Assembly: GCA_023375675.1 (NCBI GenBank)
Contig: JALQBC010000010.1
Location: forward strand, 62,001-126,000
Source: Cytospora piceicola
Lineage: Eukaryota > Ascomycota > Sordariomycetes > Diaporthales > Cytosporaceae
Direction: 5' to 3'
Length of the DNA stretch: 64,000 nucleotides
The notes beneath the pieces were generated by a model. It did no database searches. It saw only the letters and a program-made list of their open reading frames with translations, and was not told the DNA's origin. Positions 53,570-64,000 of the stretch are shown piece after piece. Position numbers and translations under genes: made by a program. How positions within the stretch are numbered: position 1 is the stretch's first letter; each line of letters begins with the position of its first letter.

Positions 53570-54634
53570 TCATCTCTCAAGGGCTGTCTCAAATCCTGTT
53601 ATGCCCTCTTCCTCTTCAACGCTCAACGTGATTTGAAAATGGTTCTTCAATGCTCGTATCCTCTCACCTTCAGTTCGACACGCCTCTACCTGCTCCGTCT
53701 TGCCGCCCATGTTCTTCTTTACAATTCCACCTGCAAGCATTATCTTGCCCGCAACTTCCACCTCCGGTATTATTTCCTCGTCCCTGCCGTCTCCATTCGA
53801 AGCCCCTCCCACTTCCCCAGAGACGAGCTGTGCTCGCCCAGAAGCAGCCGGGAGAAACTTTACCACCAGAATCTGCTTTCGTTGGAAGCTCTCTGGGTGT
53901 GATGAGACCCAGTAGTTTGCACATTCCAGATCCCAACTCGTAGCTTCATGGTCTCCGAAGGCGTAATACCGACTCCATTCCTCTCCTGGACGATTTCGGT
54001 ACTCATAAAACCAGACCTGATTCCCCGTTCCACCCCGTGCAAATGTACCCGGAAGAGAACCCTTCGTGATTCTCACCTCCTGGGTGCCCAGGTTCCTGTG
54101 CACAGGATAATGGCCATTCTCAGGAACGTCGATGAGCGGTAGCGCTGCGGTCATTCCGTCACCCCCAAAACCAACATCAGTCACCCATCGGTTCTCACCT
54201 TCAAACTCGACGATGGTGACAACATGCCGCGGCCCAACGAAGTCCCCTCTGGGTACCGGCCCATCGCGCAGCCGGATCGAGGCCTGGCTGTGGTATGCCG
54301 TGAAACCAAGGCCGCGCAGGATGTTCAGCCAGAAGATGGATGTCTCGAAACAGTAGCCTCCCCTGCCATGGGGACTTACGAACTTCTCGTATAGAGCCTG
54401 CGGGTCGATATCGTTGATGTGCTGGTGGTGGTAGTGTAGCGATAGGTTTTCGTACGGGATGGCGCAGATCTGCAGGCGGTGCAAAAGAGTAAGGGTTTCT
54501 GGATTGCGGGGGAATGAGAGCGGCAGGGGAAAGGAGATATGGTGCAGGTAGGAGAGGATTTGCGAGGGAGTGTAGGCCGAGGGAGTGGCTGTGTGGCGGA
54601 GGGTAGAGAGGCCGGGGATGAGATGGTTTTCCAT
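53570..54634 (-). CDS. Arylamine N-acetyltransferase family protein
   Basis: Single exon, 354 aa, from ATG at 54634; the frame extends upstream only to a TTG. The catalytic triad of the family is complete: Cys95 in GRGGYCFE, His137 in GPRHVVTIVEF and Asp153 in RWVTDVGFGG. The motif IPYENLSLHY near the N-terminus is also typical. These enzymes transfer acetyl (in some fungi malonyl) groups from CoA to arylamines, including plant-derived aromatic amines. A C-terminal stretch with GASNGDGRDEE is a fungal-type insert. It is the nearest intact gene left of the RiPP-like genes; whether it belongs with them is unknown. Confidence 0.9.
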   Translation of the reverse strand: MENHLIPGLSTLRHTATPSAYTPSQILSYLHHISFPLPLSFPRNPETLTLLHRLQICAIPYENLSLHYHHQHINDIDPQALYEKFVSPHGRGGYCFETSIFWLNILRGLGFTAYHSQASIRLRDGPVPRGDFVGPRHVVTIVEFEGENRWVTDVGFGGDGMTAALPLIDVPENGHYPVHRNLGTQEVRITKGSLPGTFARGGTGNQVWFYEYRNRPGEEWSRYYAFGDHEATSWDLECANYWVSSHPESFQRKQILVVKFLPAASGRAQLVSGEVGGASNGDGRDEEIIPEVEVAGKIMLAGGIVKKNMGGKTEQVEACRTEGERIRALKNHFQITLSVEEEEGITGFETALER

Positions 54635-55601
54635 TGCTGCTGACGATTGGTAGTAGAGACCCAAGAACGATGGCTCAAGTGAAGAAGACAATCACGCGAT
54701 CTTTTCTGCTTGAGTCGGCTCGAAGTAGTGATAAACTCGCTCGTCGCTCAAATATGAGAGATGACTCGCACTAATTGGGTTTAATCACGCAATCACAGGT
54801 CTGTGGAGTCACACCGAGACCGAAGCTGAAATACTGGTTACTTCATCCGCTCATGGCCACTATCATTCTTTGATCTACGCAAGCTCTATCATATTTTTCT
54901 GTTTAGTATATAAGCACTTTTCGACTACAAAACGCCCAGATGTCTGTATACTATGTAATAAATCGCTTATAAGCCAATAAGAGTTTTTCTTATAAAACCG
55001 CTTAATACTATAAGAAATATATATAGACTACCCTGTTGGTTAGAAATATATTCAGGTAAGGGTTCTCTAAGTTTTAAAATGATACAGGGGAGGGGAGGTA
55101 GTAAGTAAGTAACCGACTAACTGATTAAATAGGTAGGCAAGTAGGTAGGTAGGTAGGTAAGAAGGTAAGTAAGTGTGGTTTAATTATATTGATTATGTTA
55201 GAGATTTCGTGTTTGGTCCAAAAGCGGAATACCTACGCCTGGCACGCTTGCATGCACATAATCGTGCCTATCAACCTGTTCCATTGCCCAGGTAGCGATG
55301 AAGATATGCCTGAACATGTTGAGTATGTATTCCCTGATATGTTCGTACCCGCAATTTTCTGAATATCGTACATGAGGCTGCTGCTAGGTTCGAGCCAATT
55401 TCAACACATGTTAGCATCTGAGTATAATTATGGGGCATCCAAGCTTGTCGTAGATAATTCAAAGCTCTCAGTATACTACCGTAATGCCTACTGCATAAAA
55501 GAAGAATCGTATCTGGACTACCTACAGGATGTGCGATTGCTATAGGTAGCAGGAATACACCTGACCAAAAGGTATATCTCCTTGGGGTTTATAACCCGCA
55601 T
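54635..55601. other. AT-rich spacer left of the RiPP precursor
   Basis: About 54890-55070 is AT-rich with few CpA/TpG steps and may be a small RIP-mutated repeat fragment. It is followed by GTAG/GTAA-type microsatellites (about 55098-55170). No gene seen. Confidence 0.35.
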
Positions 55602-56087
55602 CTAAGCCTCCTCCCCACGCTTCGAGGCAGCTTGGACCCAGGCCTCATCTTCCTCCCCACGCTTCGAGGCAGCCTGGACCCAGGCCTCATCTTCCTCCCC
55701 ACGCTTCGAGGCAGCCTGGACCCAGGCCTCATCCTCCTCCCCACGCTTCGAGGCAGCCTGGACCCAGGCCTCATCCTCCTCCCCACGCTTCGAGGCAGCC
55801 TGGACCCAGGCCTCATCCTCCTCCCCACGCTTCGAGGCAGCCTGAACCCAGGCCTCATCCTCTTCCCCACGCTTGTTCATGCTTTTGGCCCAGACCTTCA
55901 AGCTGTCATCATTGCTGCGAGCGACAGTAGCTTCCTGTATGGCAGAACCTGGATGGCCAAGTAGCTGTTAGTCCTAGAGAATCTATGGTGTTCAGTATCA
56001 TCTATCTCAATACTCACCGGTGGTGGGGAGGGCTATGGCTCCAATGGCCAGGAGCGCCATAGTATAGATAAAGCCTTGTTGATGCAT
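55602..56087 (-). CDS. RiPP precursor-like secreted repeat protein (Kex2-processed)
   Basis: Two exons on the minus strand: 56087-56018 and 55948-55602, giving 138 aa. The intron is GTGAGT..CAG, phase 1. Residues 1-20 (MHQQGFIYTMALLAIGAIAL) are a signal peptide. A short leader ends in NKR. Then come six identical 14-residue units, GEEDEAWVQAASKR, and a final GEEA. Every unit ends with Lys-Arg, the Kex2 cleavage site, so processing would release six copies of a 12-residue acidic peptide with one Trp. Signal peptide, Kex2-bounded tandem cores and nearby UstYa genes match the dikaritin (UstA-type) precursor architecture. An alternative is a non-RiPP Kex2-processed peptide or pheromone. It has no Cys, which argues against alpha-pheromone. 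Confidence 0.85.
55617..55868 (-). repeat. Six 42-bp tandem repeats in the precursor gene
   Basis: Six consecutive 42-bp units in frame. The few base differences I can see (GAA/GAG, GTT/GTC, CAG/CAA) are all synonymous, so all six units code for the same 14 residues. Confidence 0.95.
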
Positions 56088-57052
56088 TATGGCAAAACGA
56101 AAAGGTGATACCAAGAGATAAATTCTTTTGACTGAAACAGGATGATGCCTCGCGAGGAAGTTTTGATGAAGCTTGGAGGTGAAGTTGTTTTGTGGTCTGT
56201 AAATAACAGTTTGATATTTTGGCAAGACTTGGCTCTAGACGCCGTATTTATACTTCCAACTTACCTTGACATCCAGCCTGTCTGTCTGCTTGATGTGGGG
56301 GGCGGTGTGAGAATGACTGCCTCTGGCCCGAAGACATAGAGGTATGAATTGATTCTTCTCATTCTGGACCTTGGAAGCAATCCTACATGCATCCCAAAAT
56401 CTCGTCATACCAGTCTAGGCCCATCTCAGTATTCCAGCCCGAGGGAGAGGCCTCATGTGATGCTGTCCACCACTGCATACGCCTCTGACGTCTCTTGCAT
56501 GTGCTGTTCTGCATTTGGGAGATATCGCGGTACCATGGTAGAAGTTGATACATGTAGGCACCAATGTATACAAAAGCACTTGAATACACTGGTCCCTCGC
56601 TGGCGATGTCAAGTGGGTACCTGATAGGGATCTTCTGTTGACGAGGTTACATGAGCTGAAACGGTTTCTGAATGCAGTACTATATTGGACCAGAATAAGA
56701 AGAGACCTAACAAACTCATTGTATATCATTCAGCTCCACTACCGCTCTGAGAAGTAATGTCTTGTGTTCCATATACTGTGTACTTCCTTCATGCATGAGC
56801 ATGGGTAGGGTAATTATTCCTTTCTTGGGTTGCATTCAGCTTCTTAGCAGCAGCCCCATGAGATATTGCATAAGTGACCAAATAGCACCCCGGACCACTT
56901 GACGCATATTGATCATTTTCCCCTCAGCAATATGCAGCATGAATTCCTTGCCCTATCCGTCCCAGCTTTTCCGTTCCCAGGTTCTCTCTTCTTTCTCTTC
57001 AGATCTGGGAAGCCATCAATGATTCACACTTGGAATATCTTTGAATCTCAAC
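56088..57052. other. Divergent promoter region between the precursor and first UstYa gene
   Basis: About 1 kb with no gene. On the minus strand TATAAATA (56252-56245) lies about 160 bases before the precursor ATG and is its likely TATA box. The region is shared by two divergent genes and could coordinate their expression. Confidence 0.45.
56245..56252 (-). promoter_or_regulatory. TATA box of the RiPP precursor gene
   Basis: Reads TATAAATA on the minus strand about 160 bases before the start codon at 56087. Assigned by sequence and position. Confidence 0.45.
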
Positions 57053-58340
57053 ATGGCAGGCTACTCCCCACTGTCGGGTCCTGAAAAGGATGTGGCCACT
57101 CCCAGGCTCTCAAAAGACGACGATGAAGATGAACCACTTGTGGGATGGGCAATCTCGCCAACCCTGCGACGCTCCTGGCTTAGAGCTCACTGGCAATCTA
57201 TTGCCGTCCACGGTCTGCTAGCTTCTGTCAACGTTTTAATAGCCACTGCCTTCGTTGCTGGATTATGGACCAACAACGATCCCCAGCATGCACCAAGTGA
57301 GTGATGACCCAACCAAATTCTGGAAAGAAATGGGTCAAGCTTACAGACTTGATCCAGCTCCGTTACGGAACGCCATACATTACGAAGGCCGTCATTTCGA
57401 CACCTCCCTCATCTACCTTGACGAAGAGACGCTGAATCCTCAAAAGACGACTTCTTTTAACGGGCCCCCACGACCTAATCTTGATGAAGCATGGCATGAT
57501 CTCCTAAAGTGTGAGTGTCCAGGAGATACGTGCATTCCAGATGCGGCTTTCAATGCCCTTTCAATAGAAAATACACTGTAACTATGTCTCCCGTATTGTC
57601 TCAACGGCTAACTGGGTGTCAGATCAGAATGTTCGAGTCAGCCAGAACGAGCTTGGCCAGTTCGACGGAGATGACAGCATAATCAAGTTGACCGACGGTA
57701 GTGGGTACTATACAACAGTCGCTGTTTTCCATGGACTGCACTGCATTCAAAGGGTCCATCACTACCTTTACTTCGAGCATTACTACCCGGATGTGACGGA
57801 TGCGGAGGCCTTTGTGCTGAAGCGACATACAGGTATGTTCAACAGGTGATCTCGCTTGAGGATATAACTTTAAGGTGCCGGTATGCGTGATTCTCAATTA
57901 CTCACATGAAGCGTGTCAGAACATTGTCTGGACTGGTTGAGGCAGTACGTTCAGTGTAACGCTGATACAACTTTAATTCCCATTCACTGGGCTACTGAGT
58001 AAGCAAATCCAACATCGGCTCCAAAAGCCAAAAGAAGAACGTACCTTTATGCTGATAAACCCATATAGTGAGCCGGGTCCAGTATCATCGGATGCAGGAA
58101 ATCACCAGTGTGTTGCTTGGGAGAGGATTGACAAGTGGATGGAAGGACACTCCTTCAACCCTTTTGAACCTGGACTGCTTATCCACCCAAAATATGGTAT
58201 GTCTCCGCGTCAATCCCGGTGAACAAGCCGCTGATTTATCTACAGGAAACCCATATGAAGGAAACCGAACAGGACCAGGGCATCATAACCTAGGGATTAC
58301 TGTTCTGGGAGACGGTGGTCTGCTACATGGTGGGCATTGA
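57053..58340 (+). CDS. UstYa-family (DUF3328) membrane oxidase, member 1
   Basis: Six exons: 57053-57296, 57358-57510, 57623-57832, 57920-57998, 58069-58196 and 58246-58340, giving 302 aa. All borders are GT..AG and the phases agree. A cytosolic N-terminus is followed by one membrane helix (about 52-72, SIAVHGLLASVNVLIATAFVAGLW) and a lumenal domain with FNGPPRPNLDEAWHDLL, the family start block. The two copper-type motifs are complete: HGLHC (169-173, in TVAVFHGLHCIQRVHHYLYF) and HTEHC (201-205, restored by splicing, then LDWLRQYVQC). The C-terminal LLIHPKYG is typical. UstYa proteins oxidise or cyclise RiPP cores in the secretory pathway. The first intron border and last exon are the least certain. 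Confidence 0.85.
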
Positions 58341-59167
58341 CTCTGGAATTTTGTTCCCAGATCTTGAAATTGTGTTAGTCTCACGAGGAATAGTTTTGTG
58401 TCCTGGTGAAGAGCACATGTAGAGGGGAAAACAAGATAGTCATTCCAAATCTGAGAATGAGATTTTATCCGATGGATGTGCAGATTGTGATCTTTAAATT
58501 GTAGGATGCCGGTTTTCACAGTGAAGTGCTACTCCTCCCCTAGGGGGCTCCAAAGCACTCCACACCGTTTCTCTATCTATAATCTTCATCATTTTGCCCC
58601 CTCGAGGACCGGACTGCTTATTGCGGCAGACTTCTTTATCTGCTCTTGCGTGACTATGATAAAGATTGCGTGCGAATCACACGCAAGGTAAGGAGGAACT
58701 ACACACATACGTCGCACAACTCTAGCACCTAGTTAAATGGTGAGCTTATGCAACATGTAATAAAGCGAGCACGACCGGGATTCTCTCACAAGAACTGCAT
58801 TATGCATTAAGCTTGCAACAGCATGCTCACCGGTCCCATCTTCCAGCATCTCCGGGGCGCCACATCTTCAGGATGGACATGTGGACGGCCACGTAAATAG
58901 GTTAGGTCGGGCCGTATAATCATATCCCTGGCTTTACCTACTTTTGATGTACCGAAGCCCGTGGGACCCATCTTCCTTGAATACGTTAGATCACTCGTTG
59001 ACTTAGTATGCTTTACATGGTGGTTCCGAGTCAACCTGGCGACCCAAGTGCTTCTCCTACTCTATTTTCCATCATTCTTCTGCTTCATTTTCCATAATCC
59101 TCACCATTCGACACGATACACCAAGTCATCCTCGGGAATATTGGTCAAAATCAGTGCTTCATACATC
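58341..59167. other. Intergenic region between the two UstYa genes
   Basis: No gene supported. An open frame runs 69 codons upstream of the next start (from 58961) but looks like leader sequence. Confidence 0.4.
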
Positions 59168-59929
59168 ATGACTTCCCCCAGTACCCCTTTTCTCACTGAA
59201 TATGATGCGCCTGGGCTCGAGAAGGCATTACAACAGCGAAAACCGATCAACGAAGGCAAAGAATTCATCACGAAAAAGCGAGTTCGCATGGAATTGTTTA
59301 CCAAGAGTATACTTTACTTCCTGGTAGCCAGTTGCCTCGCTTCCCTCGGCATTATTCTGGGACGAACAGTCTTTCAACCTCACTTTGACCCAAGCCCCCG
59401 TCCTGAAGGCCCCCCATCGAGACAGGTAGCTGATGTCTATCGTCCGGCGACACTTGAACCAGGCTTCAACATATGCGATTGCGGCAATACCATCCAGGAG
59501 GCGCTGGACCGAGACTGCGTCTATGACAGCATGGCCACAGCTTGGCTGCCACCATACTGTCGTGACGACGAGTTAACGGCCGAATTTGACCGAGCTGGGC
59601 CTGGAGAACACGGCGAATGGGCTTATTTTGCAGATGAACAGGGCAGAGTGCCTCTGACCAAGGCTGACCTGGGTTTGCTTGGGGACACAGGTGGCAAATT
59701 CTGGGTATCCCGGGACTGGCATATTGCTCACTGCCTATTTTACTGGCAGAAATACCATCGAATGCGCCAGACTGGAGCTGTCATGGAGGATCGCTACGAC
59801 AGGATCTCACATATCAAACACTGTACGCGACTGGCGATGAACCCTGTTCCGAACCATAGCTTTCTCATCGAAGTCCCTGTAACGATGAATTCCAGCATCT
59901 CTGCTGGGAAGCTTATGACTGGCCACTGA
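59168..59929 (+). CDS. UstYa-family (DUF3328-like) membrane oxidase, member 2
   Basis: Single exon, 253 aa. I start at MTSPSTPFLTEYDAPG; in-frame upstream codons lack the family pattern. One membrane helix (about 46-66, ILYFLVASCLASLGIILGRTVF) precedes a lumenal domain with paired motifs HIAHC (185-189) and HIKHC (215-219). It belongs to the subgroup whose lumenal half begins with a Cys-containing CDCGNTIQEALDRDCVYDSM ... AWLPPYCRD block, unlike the first UstYa gene here. Pairs of distinct UstYa/UstYb-type proteins are common in dikaritin clusters. The protein ends soon after the second motif, as is usual for this subgroup. Confidence 0.82.
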   Translation: MTSPSTPFLTEYDAPGLEKALQQRKPINEGKEFITKKRVRMELFTKSILYFLVASCLASLGIILGRTVFQPHFDPSPRPEGPPSRQVADVYRPATLEPGFNICDCGNTIQEALDRDCVYDSMATAWLPPYCRDDELTAEFDRAGPGEHGEWAYFADEQGRVPLTKADLGLLGDTGGKFWVSRDWHIAHCLFYWQKYHRMRQTGAVMEDRYDRISHIKHCTRLAMNPVPNHSFLIEVPVTMNSSISAGKLMTGH

Positions 59930-62160
59930 ACATTACATCTCAAGTCGCAAGGATTGGATCATTGTGTAGCAACTGTAACGGAGGAGGGCTTTGGGCCTGT
60001 GGAGGTCTGCTACGTTCTGGTGTTTTTGGAGTGGCTTGCGGTGAGGATATATTGGTAATAAACAGCATTATTACTGATTAGATGGGCATACCGTCAAGAA
60101 CAAACGACATCATTGATACTCAGCCTGTGAGTCCAAACCCATGGACGCCACGTACCTAAGTAGATCCTAGCCATACAGTAGAAATTAGTTTTTAGGGGCC
60201 CCCTCCGCCTCAAGGGCGCACGGGTTTGAATGTGCGTGTTGCATTGGCTAGATCATAATGGAGAAACCTACCCAAGTATGCTGTTCATGCAAATATCGGG
60301 GGAGAGTGTGTAGGTGTGTTTCATACAATGCATGCCCTCTATACATGGTTAGCTCGTAGGAGACTCTTCGCCGATCTTAGCTACGACTTGAACCATGGCC
60401 TAAAACACGCGGTCAGGGGGTGGCAATATGCAAACTATAAAAAATGTATTCCTGCAGTTTATTTAATGAAATGGACCCATAATCCGTCCGGAATCAATTC
60501 TCCTTCGACAGCATTCGCAGATGGCTGTCACTTGCATTGACTGCACTAGAACCTGCTCCTAAAATCCACTCGCCCGCAATCGCAGGATCGGTATGTGCTG
60601 ATGACTGCAGCAATAGTTCACAACGACTAACCCCGCTCCGAAAAGAACTCAGGTATGTAATAAGAAGGGTAAATTCACTTCCGCGCCACAGGTAACCTGG
60701 TCCCGGGGCCATATTGGAACTACCAGGAGCGCAGCCCCGCACACCGTTGTTTTAGAACGAATATGGGTGGTGATAGTTCAAAAAGTCCATCCACACTTCC
60801 AAGAATACGTGGCAGAGGAAGCGTTAGAATGTAACCGGAATTTTTCCGCTTTTAGGCACAGAACACCAAACAGCGCATGGCGTCGATAACCCCACAATTC
60901 AGGGTTTAAGAGGGAAAGATATGGGATAACATGCATGAATATTCGGTAAGTACGGCAGTATGTGAGGAAGGTTACAGCCTGGGCATTCCATTCCATGTAT
61001 ATTACCAGCAGGCGTAGCAAGTTCGAAAAATGACCACCCTACTTCTGTAGATGAGAAAACAAGCAGGCAATGTGTAGTAGCACTTTGGGTATGATGCTAT
61101 TGCATTGGTAGTTTTCTCTGTGTTCGTGTGTGTGTTGCTTATTTCTATGGAAGGGCCTAAACGCCCGATAGATATTCATACAGAAAAGTGGGGCCGAGGA
61201 ACCCACCTAAACGGTGGCCCCCTATTGGCCACCACACAATGTGGATTGTGATACATACTAAGTACCGAGCCATACTCCTTCTGCTCAATATAAACGGAAT
61301 TGACCACGATCTCAGTACCCACCGGCCCTGTCAAGCTTGCACCGATAGTACCATGCAGTTGTTAACTATCTACGTATGTAATGGACGGACTAAGCAGAGG
61401 CTACACCGGAATTGGTATGGAACCTGACAGGGAGTGAGGAGTTACAGGTTGTTAGGGGCGTGTCCAGGTGGGAAGTTAGAACGCCAGCACTGATAACACT
61501 CGCACCGGGGGATATATCCTGCATGTGCGATCCTACGTCCACTGCATTATTAGGTAGTCAGCTGTTCGGGTGCATGTGGCTCGAATGGGTCGGACCGCCG
61601 GCACTTGTAGACAATAGTACAAGCCCATTCCAAGGCAGTGCGCCCGGATACAGAAATCCGGGAATCTGGGATAATCTCAGGGCAAGGTGGCGTCGAAATC
61701 GACCCAAGTTGAAACAATATCAGCACGTGAACATCGATCATCAGCTGCATGCTTGGCGCATATGCACAAGAGTTACAACAAACATTACTTACTGTGTACA
61801 TAATACATTGAGGCACGGAGAGGCTATTGCTGAGTTGCATTAGTTTTTGAGCAGGCGATAGGTTCTTATACTTGCTACCCTTGAGGTTTTAACGTCATTG
61901 GCTCCTGGTCAACAACGCCTGGAGGAGGCAACGAAGTCTCAAGCGGTGAAGACATGACCACGCGGCCTTCTGTTATCTCCAAACTTCATAGATGCTCGAA
62001 GTCACGCAATCAATCAAGCCATCGAATGAACATATTACGGCATATAACTATCCCGGAACACCGAGGTAGGCGAGAGTGATAACGTACGTAAAGCAGGATA
62101 TGTTTTGTTCCCAACACTATAGACATTACCAAGCCAGGACTGACCTGGTAGGGGGTCAAT
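59930..62160. other. Gene-poor region inside the RiPP-like locus
   Basis: About 2.2 kb without a supportable gene. The longest frame (61412-61843, +) has no recognisable motif and an antisense frame of similar length. Sequence may be decayed cluster genes, but I see no convincing remnant. Confidence 0.4.
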
Positions 62161-62400
62161 ATGACGCAGTCTTCCCTGCTAGCTAGCGACTTGGGCACCC
62201 CAGAGATGCTGTCAGCTTGCCTCGACGACCAACGTGAGCCGAAGCACAATGTTCTTTCAATATACCCCCACCAGCAGGTGATCAAAGCCTGGGGTATTCC
62301 GGCAGATTTCAAGGTCTTGGAAATTGGACCTTGCCCATGTGTATGCAAGCTGCCTCCTCCCGAGGCCAAGACCAGTGCTTCACACCACCCGAATCATTGA
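62161..62400 (+). pseudogene. Truncated SAM-dependent methyltransferase remnant
   Basis: ATG 62161 opens a frame whose first 60 codons read like the N-terminus of a fungal class-I methyltransferase. ...YPHQQVIKAWGIPADFKVLEIG corresponds to the usual (I/V)xxWGI..g..VLEIGCGQGD block. After LEIG the similarity stops (PCPCVCKLPPPEA) and the frame ends at 62400. No continuation with the rest of the SAM domain is found in the next 400 bases in any frame, and no good donor is present. Methyltransferases are regular members of dikaritin clusters, so this may be a lost tailoring gene. Confidence 0.5.
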
Positions 62401-62807
62401 CCAAATAGCCTAGGAAGAGGCTAGAAGTGGAAGTAGTGATTTCGTGGAGGTATCGCAGGTGTGCCAAAAAAGGAGAGGTAACAGCCCGTGGACGCGTTCG
62501 GATGGCTTGCACATGTAATTAGCAGATCACAGCCAGTGTTAGCACCTAAAATGATGGCTATTTTCGAACCAATATCCATTCCTTATCCTGCTGTGATAAA
62601 CAAAAATAAGTCCTTCACAACAGGTCCCTAAAGATTCATAGGCAACGAGTCGTTGGACGTTCTGAGGCCAGCGCAATTGACTATTTTGTGTGTAATACAC
62701 GACTGGCACCTTGTCGCGAGCTGATGAAGCAAGCTGTTTAACACAGTCACACCCAGCTCCACTCTAACCATATGCCAGCCGTCTTCCGATGTGTAAATCT
62801 TCCATTC
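62401..62807. other. Intergenic region
   Basis: 3' flank of the MFS gene and spacer. No gene or notable structure seen. Confidence 0.35.
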
Positions 62808-64000
62808 TCACTTGTTCGGATTCAAGATAGAAACGACAAGTAGTGCGAATGCAAAGCATACACCAGAGACAAGGAAAGGCATACCCATCCAAAAATCACC
62901 GAGTCTCATCCCCCATTGGAACATGGCGGCCAGCAGTGGCCCGCCAGCCAGCAACCCCATGTAAGTCATGACCGAGACCAAAGTGAACACGGTGCCGAGG
63001 TGCGCCTGGTCTACCATGCTTGTTATCAAACTTCTGGCGGGGACAGCAAAACCGTGTCCCAAACAAAATAATACTTGGCCACAGATGAGAGGAGCCGAGG
63101 AAGATGCGAAGAATATTGCTACAGATCCCGCCACAAGAAAGCATCCGCTTACTTGAGCAATCCTCTTATCCTTTAGTGTCTTATGAAGATGCAAGTAGTG
63201 CAACATAAAGCCAGACAGAACGGGAATACCGACTGCGAGCACAATCAAAATTACCCCTGCCCTGAGAGACAGGAGATATGATGCCTGGAGCACGAGTATT
63301 GTAAGCTTTTGGAAAAGGGTCCATTTGGCATTGGGTGAACTCGCCTTTGCAAGGGACCAACCCAATCGCTTGGAAGTGTACTGTAAGAGTAGGGTTCCAT
63401 CGGATTGCTCTCCTAGATACAGGGCTAGGAAACAAGTCAAGACCATGGCAATCTTGGCATTCTTTGACGCCCATGAGCTCAATCGGCTCCAACGAGTACA
63501 AAAAGATCTCCAGCCCGCCCGGAAGGTCTGTGGGAGTCCCCTGGCCTCTCCTCTATCGATCAAGGGGCTAGTCTCATGTCCAGAACTTGTGCTGGCTCGG
63601 TTTGACGACAGAGTCTCAGGTACCAGAAGAATTGCCACCACAAATCCAACGGCCTCCACGGCCACTGAGACCATCATGGGAGTCCAAGGGTTTCTCTCCA
63701 TCATAGCAGCCCCAACTGGGACGAAGATGAGCTGCGACAGCAAGGGGCCTGATTGCATCAATGAGAATGCAGTGGTTCTAAATTTCGTTCAGCGTCTAGT
63801 TCGTCAAAGACATTATACGAACATATCTTCAGGTCAGGATTGATACGAACCTCTGGTCGGCAGGGCAAACATCAGCAACCTGGGCATATACAACAGAGGA
63901 CAGTGTTGCGGGGCCTGATCCAATGACTTGCCAGAGGCCTCCGATCCAGACGACGCGAAGAGGGAAAGTCTCCGGAAACCAGTCTTCATGTACGGGTCAG
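62808..64000 (-). CDS. MFS transporter, C-terminal part (5' end outside window)
   Basis: Partial gene on the minus strand with exons up to 64000-63851, 63777-63345 and 63284-62808 (stop TGA). The first intron is GTTCGT..TAG and joins VADVCPADQR-TTAFSLMQSGPLL. The second (63344-63285, 60 nt) begins with GC: donor AAG|GCGAGT, branch CTTAC, acceptor CAG. It restores RLGWSLAKASYLLSLRAG. The region FPLRVVWIGGLWQVIGSGPATLSSVVYAQVADVC is the TM4-TM5 part of fungal MFS exporters; at least seven more helices follow. Likely a plasma-membrane exporter of the small-molecule or peptide product of the neighbouring RiPP-like genes (inference from position). Confidence 0.88.

What the first reader, a model, noticed from the sequence alone, without database searches (positions are those of the whole stretch)
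55602..64000. Candidate dikaritin-type RiPP cluster with an unfamiliar core
A signal-peptide precursor with six Kex2-bounded repeats, two UstYa-family oxidases with intact paired HxxHC motifs, a methyltransferase remnant and an MFS exporter lie within 8.4 kb. This is the gene set of ustiloxin/phomopsin-like RiPP pathways. The repeat unit (GEEDEAWVQAASKR) does not match any core I know, so the product may be undescribed.
Basis: partly seen in the sequence, partly recalled or inferred. Interest (0 to 1): 0.92.

Follow-up and report, generated by a model that had tools for sequence, protein, structure and literature searches.

The report
Fungal copper-oxidase-modified peptide gene cluster
This stretch of a fungal genome holds genes that look set up to cut a small secreted peptide out of a repeated template and oxidise it with copper enzymes, a known kind of pathway, here with a template whose only aromatic residue is tryptophan instead of the usual tyrosine.

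Summary
The core observation holds. A two-exon minus-strand gene (56087-55602) encodes 138 aa: signal peptide, leader, six identical GEEDEAWVQAASKR units, GEEA tail. The four variable DNA sites among repeats are all silent. Head-to-head lies a UstYa gene (57053-58340; PF11807, E=1.2e-49), then an intronless gene (59168-59929) that also has two HxxHC motifs but does not itself match the Pfam model. The pair is conserved: in 19 of 22 named species found with both, they sit on a contig of the same listed length; eight pairs have consecutive locus tags; three gene models carry both. The cluster continues past the window: complete MFS, ABC transporter, intact O-methyltransferase, three more UstYa genes. 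Two other loci in this genome repeat the layout (repeat precursor head-to-head with UstYa, MFS nearby) with Tyr-containing units. The 'methyltransferase remnant' is not supported. No tyrosinase match lies on this contig, and no S41 peptidase match in the genome. Best reading: a UstY-dependent (dikaritin-like) RiPP cluster with a Trp-only unit; a new member of a known kind (1758 such precursors were counted in 2020). Product and chemistry are untested.

The parts
55602..56087 (-). Precursor gene: exon 1 56087-56018 (signal peptide), intron 56017-55949, exon 2 55948-55602 (leader, six GEEDEAWVQAASKR units, GEEA)
   Evidence: Splice model; repeats; silent-only variation; unique in the genome
57053..58340 (+). 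UstYa-1, PF11807 oxidase, 307 aa, five introns, HGLHC and HTEHC; head-to-head with the precursor, 965 bases between the two ATGs
   Evidence: Splice model; Pfam E=1.2e-49; homologues; gap
59168..59929 (+). UstY-2, intronless, 253 aa, HIAHC and HIKHC; partner of UstYa-1 in many fungi; below detection by PF11807
62161..62400 (+).
   Evidence: No Pfam or NCBIfam match at E<=10
62808..64000 (-). 3' part of an MFS transporter gene; its start lies beyond the window at 64598 in window numbering; 536-aa splice model
   Evidence: PF07690 E=4.2e-16; related to the MFS genes of L017 and L018

Best explanation
This is the left part of a RiPP gene cluster of up to about 26 kb. The signal peptide sends the precursor into the secretory pathway; a Kex2-type protease cuts after each KR, and exopeptidases trim, releasing identical acidic peptides GEEDEAWVQAAS. 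Membrane-anchored UstY proteins, binuclear copper oxidases by analogy with CctR, oxidise the unit. The conserved UstYa-1/UstY-2 pair acts on it, perhaps as a heteromer. The most likely target is the only aromatic residue, Trp7, giving either a cross-link to a neighbouring side chain (loss of 2 H) or a hydroxylation. The right-hand UstYa proteins and the O-methyltransferase may add steps, and MFS/ABC proteins export the product. Shown here: gene structures, repeats, motifs, the conserved oxidase pair, the recurring layout. Inferred: cleavage, copper chemistry, target residue, order of steps, membership of the right-hand genes, any bioactivity. My odds: UstY-modified RiPP 0.75-0.8; Trp as the modified residue about 0.5; a Trp cross-link in particular about 0.35.
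For: Precursor anatomy and silent-only variation between units. UstYa-1 and four further double-HxxHC genes within about 26 kb. Two other loci of this genome, of 20 other UstY loci scanned, repeat the layout of precursor head-to-head with UstYa and MFS nearby; the L017 precursor has its intron at the same position and phase after the signal peptide. Models of UstY-2 and of a UstYa-1 orthologue both put the two HxxHC motifs on neighbouring helices after one long N-terminal helix, as described for the copper enzyme CctR (PMC12435403, parts 1 and 2 of 3 read). DUF3328 genes are enriched next to Kex2-processed repeat genes (PMC7329392, section 7).
Against: No expression, product or activity data. 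No tyrosinase match on the contig and no S41 peptidase match in the genome. The unit has no Tyr, and in PMC7329392 the share of repeats with Trp is no higher with DUF3328 neighbours than without (20.5% and 24.5%), so Trp gives no special support for modification. Of 20 other UstY loci scanned, 18 had no clear precursor within 10 kb, so a UstY gene alone does not imply a RiPP. Whether the right-hand genes belong to the same pathway is not shown. Profile comparison of the UstY-2 and UstYa-1 families is insignificant (0.5% probability, E=0.13), so their kinship rests on motif, layout and weak Pfam hits.
Confidence: 0.7

Rival explanations
1. The precursor yields unmodified linear secreted peptides (signal, pheromone-like or effector), and the UstY genes beside it serve another substrate.
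For: Most Kex2-processed repeat proteins (78% of 7878) have no DUF3328 neighbour and many are linear (PMC7329392). The unit lacks Tyr. UstY proteins also work in non-RiPP pathways (PMC12048977 passages; PMC12435403).
Against: Head-to-head layout with UstYa seen at three loci of this genome; no mating-factor family among the Pfam rows up to E<=10; pheromone genes almost never have DUF3328 neighbours (PMC7329392 passages).
Confidence: 0.15
2. Two clusters lie side by side: a minimal RiPP cluster (precursor, UstYa-1, UstY-2, MFS) and a separate right-hand pathway (O-methyltransferase, UstYa R1-R3, ABC, second MFS) with another substrate.
For: The L017 and L018 loci show that precursor, UstYa and MFS are a unit by themselves. 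About 9 kb with an ABC transporter gene and a fungal-rhodopsin gene lies between the two halves.
Against: No second repeat precursor was found in L009-L012, and I saw no synthase-type gene among the listed ORFs there (by eye only). Known clusters can hold five UstY genes (phomopsin, PMC7329392).
Confidence: 0.4
3. The array is a non-coding or chance open tandem repeat.
For: Tandem repeats of 42 bases keep frames open; two other frames over the array are open too.
Against: Signal peptide, intron and stop fit one frame; silent-only variation in that frame; the L017 gene shares the exon layout.
Confidence: 0.02

Closest known systems
Ustiloxin and phomopsin clusters (dikaritins)
   Same: Signal-peptide precursor with KR-bounded repeats, UstYa-family oxidases next to it, transporters, a methyltransferase in reach; phomopsin also has five UstY genes (PMC7329392 passages)
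   Different: No tyrosinase match on the contig, no S41 peptidase match in the genome, Trp-only unit instead of a Tyr core
Asperipin-2a cluster
   Same: Repeat precursor plus UstY without tyrosinase or peptidase (as told in PMC12048977 passages)
   Different: One UstY gene and a Tyr core there; five double-HxxHC genes and a Trp-only unit here
Victorin and epichloecyclin pathways
   Same: Multi-core Kex2 precursors, UstY-type modification; victorin is not linked through Tyr (PMC9233826 passages)
   Different: Other core residues; not compared by sequence here
Uncharacterised Kex2-processed repeat proteins with DUF3328 neighbours
   Same: Same gene arrangement; 1758 of 7878 counted, 20.5% of them with Trp in the repeat (PMC7329392 section 7)
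   Different: This unit was not found in the capped protein search; the survey's own table could not be consulted
CctR, copper-dependent DUF3328 hydroxylase
   Same: Membrane helix and double HxxHC on paired helices, by model (PMC12435403)
   Different: Acts on a non-ribosomal cyclic peptide as a homodimer; here a conserved pair of unlike proteins next to a ribosomal precursor

Membership tests
Dikaritins (2021 criterion as cited in PMC12048977) | DUF3328 protein with two HxxHC motifs as class-defining enzyme | tested here: met
   UstYa-1 PF11807 E=1.2e-49 with HGLHC/HTEHC; three more PF11807 genes to the right
Dikaritins (2021 criterion as cited in PMC12048977) | Precursor with signal peptide and repeated Kex2-bounded cores | tested here: met
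   signal peptide judged from hydropathy and position, no dedicated predictor run
Dikaritins (2021 criterion as cited in PMC12048977) | UstY-made side-chain cross-link or oxidation in the product | not testable with these tools
   Needs mass spectrometry or enzyme assay
Ustiloxin/phomopsin type (five gene classes of 2015) | Tyrosinase in the cluster | tested here: not met
   Five PF00264 matches in the genome, none on contig C2
Ustiloxin/phomopsin type (five gene classes of 2015) | Methyltransferase in the cluster | tested here: inconclusive
   Remnant unsupported; an intact O-methyltransferase lies about 9.3 kb beyond the window, pathway membership unknown
Ustiloxin/phomopsin type (five gene classes of 2015) | Transporter or peptidase | tested here: met
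   MFS PF07690 E=4.2e-16, ABC pieces; S41 peptidase absent at E<=0.001
Ustiloxin/phomopsin type (five gene classes of 2015) | Tyr-containing core | tested here: not met
   Unit GEEDEAWVQAAS
DUF3328/PF11807, for UstY-2 | Match to the Pfam model | tested here: not met
   No family at E<=0.1; 10 of 50 relatives match weakly, best 4.4e-5
DUF3328/PF11807, for UstY-2 | Two HxxHC motifs on paired helices behind a membrane-type helix | tested here: met
   86 of 90 family members have the pair; model pLDDT 82.9
DUF3328/PF11807, for UstY-2 | Common fold with UstYa | tested here: inconclusive
   Profile comparison insignificant; fold look-ups gave nothing useful
Fungal mating pheromone precursors | Mating-factor domain | tested here: inconclusive
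   No mating-factor family among eight rows up to E<=10, but Pfam covers ascomycete pheromones poorly (recalled) and no pheromone was compared

The most novel reading that the evidence does not exclude
UstYa-1 and UstY-2 form a two-protein binuclear copper oxidase, conserved across many Pezizomycotina, that cross-links tryptophan in Kex2-released peptides; UstY-2 stands for a branch of DUF3328-type enzymes that the current Pfam model mostly misses, so that a set of fungal RiPP clusters goes half recognised.
Probability: 0.22. Interest if true: 0.7.

Novelty: new member of a known kind. Interest (0 to 1): 0.45.

Why it matters
Few dikaritins are characterised against 1758 catalogued DUF3328-linked repeat precursors (PMC7329392). 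A cluster with a Trp-only unit, no tyrosinase on its contig and a conserved pair of unlike oxidases makes it testable which residue and bond such a pair chooses. The pair itself, findable as neighbouring genes in many genomes, is a search handle that a Pfam scan alone would half miss.

Tried and rejected
Precursor homologues: the 7998 candidates sharing most words were scored and none reached E<=0.001.

Pfam PF20165 (KBTB W-type LIR motif) hits the six units (E=7.3e-12 for the whole protein). I take this as a short-motif coincidence multiplied by six: the residue three after Trp is Ala and not Leu/Ile/Val (consensus recalled), and the peptide is predicted to be secreted. PF19075 also appears at E=7.9e-5, below its cut-off, with no stretch passing on its own.

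No Rfam match at gathering scores in 54000-64000. No paper with any of four letter strings of the unit. In the passages of PMC7099791 that I saw (Trichoderma RiPPs) this cluster was not described. Other paper searches, seen as listings. Asperigimycins, which I recall as Trp-containing fungal RiPPs, do not occur in the five papers listed (papers needed three of five terms).

The count of 19 of 22 species compares longest-contig lengths and names as printed; no other genome was opened. Named entries only (40 and 53 species, 22 in both); unnamed rows were left out. The three that do not share a length are Nemania serpens, Cladorrhinum PSN259 and Pyrenophora tritici-repentis. JGI-style tags need not be positional. 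Same contig does not mean adjacent on long contigs.

Control for precursors: 22 other UstY loci were merged by eye from the 36 rows (four rows belong to this cluster); 20 were fetched and scanned. The other two, and all planned random control windows, could not be fetched; the background is therefore window 1-54000, L009-L012 and shuffles only.
Full report
Place. The window is G000:C2:62001-126000 of an unnamed 43.6 Mb genome in 99 contigs, fungal by its introns and protein relatives; the species was not determined. C2 coordinates are window + 62000; L009 starts at C2:125001 and L010 at C2:134501.

Precursor. On the minus strand an ATG at 56087 opens a signal-peptide-like stretch; a 69-nt GT-AG intron (56017-55949) follows; exon 2 encodes SAIQEATVARSNDDSLKVWAKSMNKR (its first codon spans the splice), six identical GEEDEAWVQAASKR units and GEEA, 138 aa in all. 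Four of 42 positions vary among the units, all silent third positions. Compared over five units, the other two forward frames change an amino acid in each of three varying codons; the three reverse frames change 1, 0 and 2 of two varying codons, so this is support and not proof by itself. Tandem Repeats Finder scores the array at 501, the best of three rows in the window. A protein search of the genome hits only this array, on its two strands.

Oxidases. UstYa-1 (57053-58340, six exons, 307 aa) matches PF11807 at E=1.2e-49. UstY-2 (59168-59929, no intron, 253 aa) has a membrane-type helix and two HxxHC motifs but matches no Pfam family at E<=0.1; of 50 family members scanned, out of 90 found, 10 match PF11807 at E<=0.1. 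The homologue lists hold 90 proteins for UstY-2 (P0001 being the window's own) and 61 for UstYa-1 (the searches only reach relatives sharing exact words). Paired HxxHC occur in 86 of 90 and 53 of 61; the rest have one motif (3 and 8) or none (1 and 0). In the own genome UstY-2 has five weak relatives (26-35% identity).

The pair is conserved. Consecutive locus tags: Hirsutella rhossiliensis HRG_005162/005163, Ophiocordyceps camponoti-floridani GQ602_003861/003860, O. unilateralis XA68_11634/11635, Apiospora kogelbergensis PG998_006848/006847, Xylariaceae sp. FL1651 459851/459850, Trichoderma velutinum 464020/464019, Talaromyces rugulosus 02455/02454, Tolypocladium paradoxum TPAR_08443/08442. 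In 19 of 22 named species that appear in both lists the two sit on a contig of the same listed length (20 contigs). Three gene models, P0019, P0093 and P0103, carry UstYa-1 and UstY-2 features in one protein (P0103 lacks the second motif pair). These may be annotation fusions of neighbouring genes, which would still show adjacency. Whether repeat precursors stand beside the pair elsewhere was not tested.

Structure. A UstYa-1 orthologue (P0091; pLDDT 78.6 for the best, 61-69 for the other four models; 39 sequences) and UstY-2 (pLDDT 82.9, all five models 81-83; 50 sequences) were modelled. Both have one long N-terminal helix and two neighbouring helices carrying the motifs (172-176 and 204-208 in P0091; 185-189 and 215-219 in UstY-2). 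PMC12435403 (parts 1 and 2 of 3 read) describes this arrangement for CctR, with copper dependence, two coppers per monomer, O2 dependence, a homodimer, and loss of activity when the motif residues are changed. Transfer of that chemistry to this cluster is inference.

Beyond the window. MFS: 536-aa splice model, start at 64598 in window numbering, PF07690 E=4.2e-16. ABC transporter pieces in C2:127380-132013 (intactness not established). A fungal-rhodopsin-domain gene at C2:134041-134763. O-methyltransferase C2:135311-136864, 395 aa, PF00891 and PF08100. UstYa R1 C2:138227-137016 on the minus strand (HSLHC/HVDHC), R2 C2:138494-139377 (HQLHC/HMRHC), R3 C2:140799-141740 (HNLHC/HALHC); PF11807 at 7.6e-42, 3.4e-22 and 1.7e-25. 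A second MFS up to C2:143732, known by one exon (PF07690 5e-10). From about C2:145.5 kb the ORFs look unrelated (by eye). Left of the precursor is an N-acetyltransferase gene (53570-54691, PF00797), taken as outside. If both halves belong together the cluster spans C2:117602 to about 143732.

Recurring layout. Scanning about 10 kb around 20 of 22 other UstY loci for KR-bounded repeats found two precursors at 50% identity, and none in window 1-54000, L009-L012 or 100 shuffles. L017: 120-aa precursor with units such as SDSEDAVQKGYKR; its exon 1 is also 70 nt long, with the intron at the same phase (letters). L018: 292-aa precursor, 13 units such as DPEAAKQYFHVAGDVLDKR. Each stands head-to-head with a UstYa gene and near an MFS related to the one here (33% over 495 aa; 36% over 136 aa in the best piece). 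At looser settings weak single pairs also appear in L018 (other strand), L022, L029 and L032 and were not counted. So 3 of 21 examined UstY loci, ours included, have a clear precursor, and all three have the divergent layout. All three repeat types carry an acidic stretch ending in Ala before the more hydrophobic part (EEDEA, DSEDA, PEAA), which may mark recognition or trimming; this is an observation on three cases only.

Against known families. By the 2021 criterion cited in PMC12048977 (passages), a double-HxxHC DUF3328 protein with a repeat precursor makes this a dikaritin-type cluster. It is not of the full ustiloxin/phomopsin type: no tyrosinase match on C2, no S41 peptidase match in the genome, no Tyr in the unit; but the same passages say that working clusters without one or more of these genes are known. 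PMC7329392 (passages and section 7) counted 7878 Kex2-processed repeat proteins, 1758 with DUF3328 neighbours; 65.6% of repeats in those have Tyr and 20.5% Trp, against 38.2% and 24.5% without DUF3328 neighbours. A Trp unit is therefore a minority case and not unprecedented, and Trp itself does not predict modification.

Verdict. In all likelihood a real UstY-dependent RiPP cluster of a known kind, with an undescribed Trp-only unit and, as the more useful result, a conserved oxidase pair whose second member escapes the Pfam model.

Noticed in passing
L017 6704-7124 + strand (C27:454303 onward): Another Kex2-repeat precursor (120 aa, units such as SDSEDAVQKGYKR), head-to-head with a UstYa gene and followed by an MFS gene.
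   Followed up: partly
L018 2429-3307 minus strand (C1:230228-231106): A third precursor (292 aa, 13 units such as DPEAAKQYFHVAGDVLDKR and DLEAAKQYIYDDSTVLDKR), head-to-head with a UstYa gene; MFS gene pieces nearby.
   Followed up: partly
G000:C79:16802-18801: A UstYa match (minus) and a UstY-2-like match (plus, 32% identity) lie about 1.2 kb apart, so a distant copy of the pair may exist in the same genome.
   Followed up: no
window 59168-59929; homologues: The UstY-2 family (86 of 90 with paired HxxHC) is mostly invisible to PF11807: 10 of 50 scanned match at E<=0.1.
   Followed up: partly
window 55602-55948: Pfam PF20165 (KBTB W-type LIR motif) hits all six units; probably a short-motif coincidence.
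   Followed up: no
C54:22497-38126, C33:45484-48320, C37:215777-226029: Other places in the genome with several UstYa matches close together; no clear repeat precursor at 50% identity in the 10-kb stretches scanned there (L020, L025, L034-L036).
   Followed up: partly
window 53570-54691 minus strand: N-acetyltransferase gene (PF00797) next to the precursor; whether it belongs to the cluster is open.
   Followed up: no
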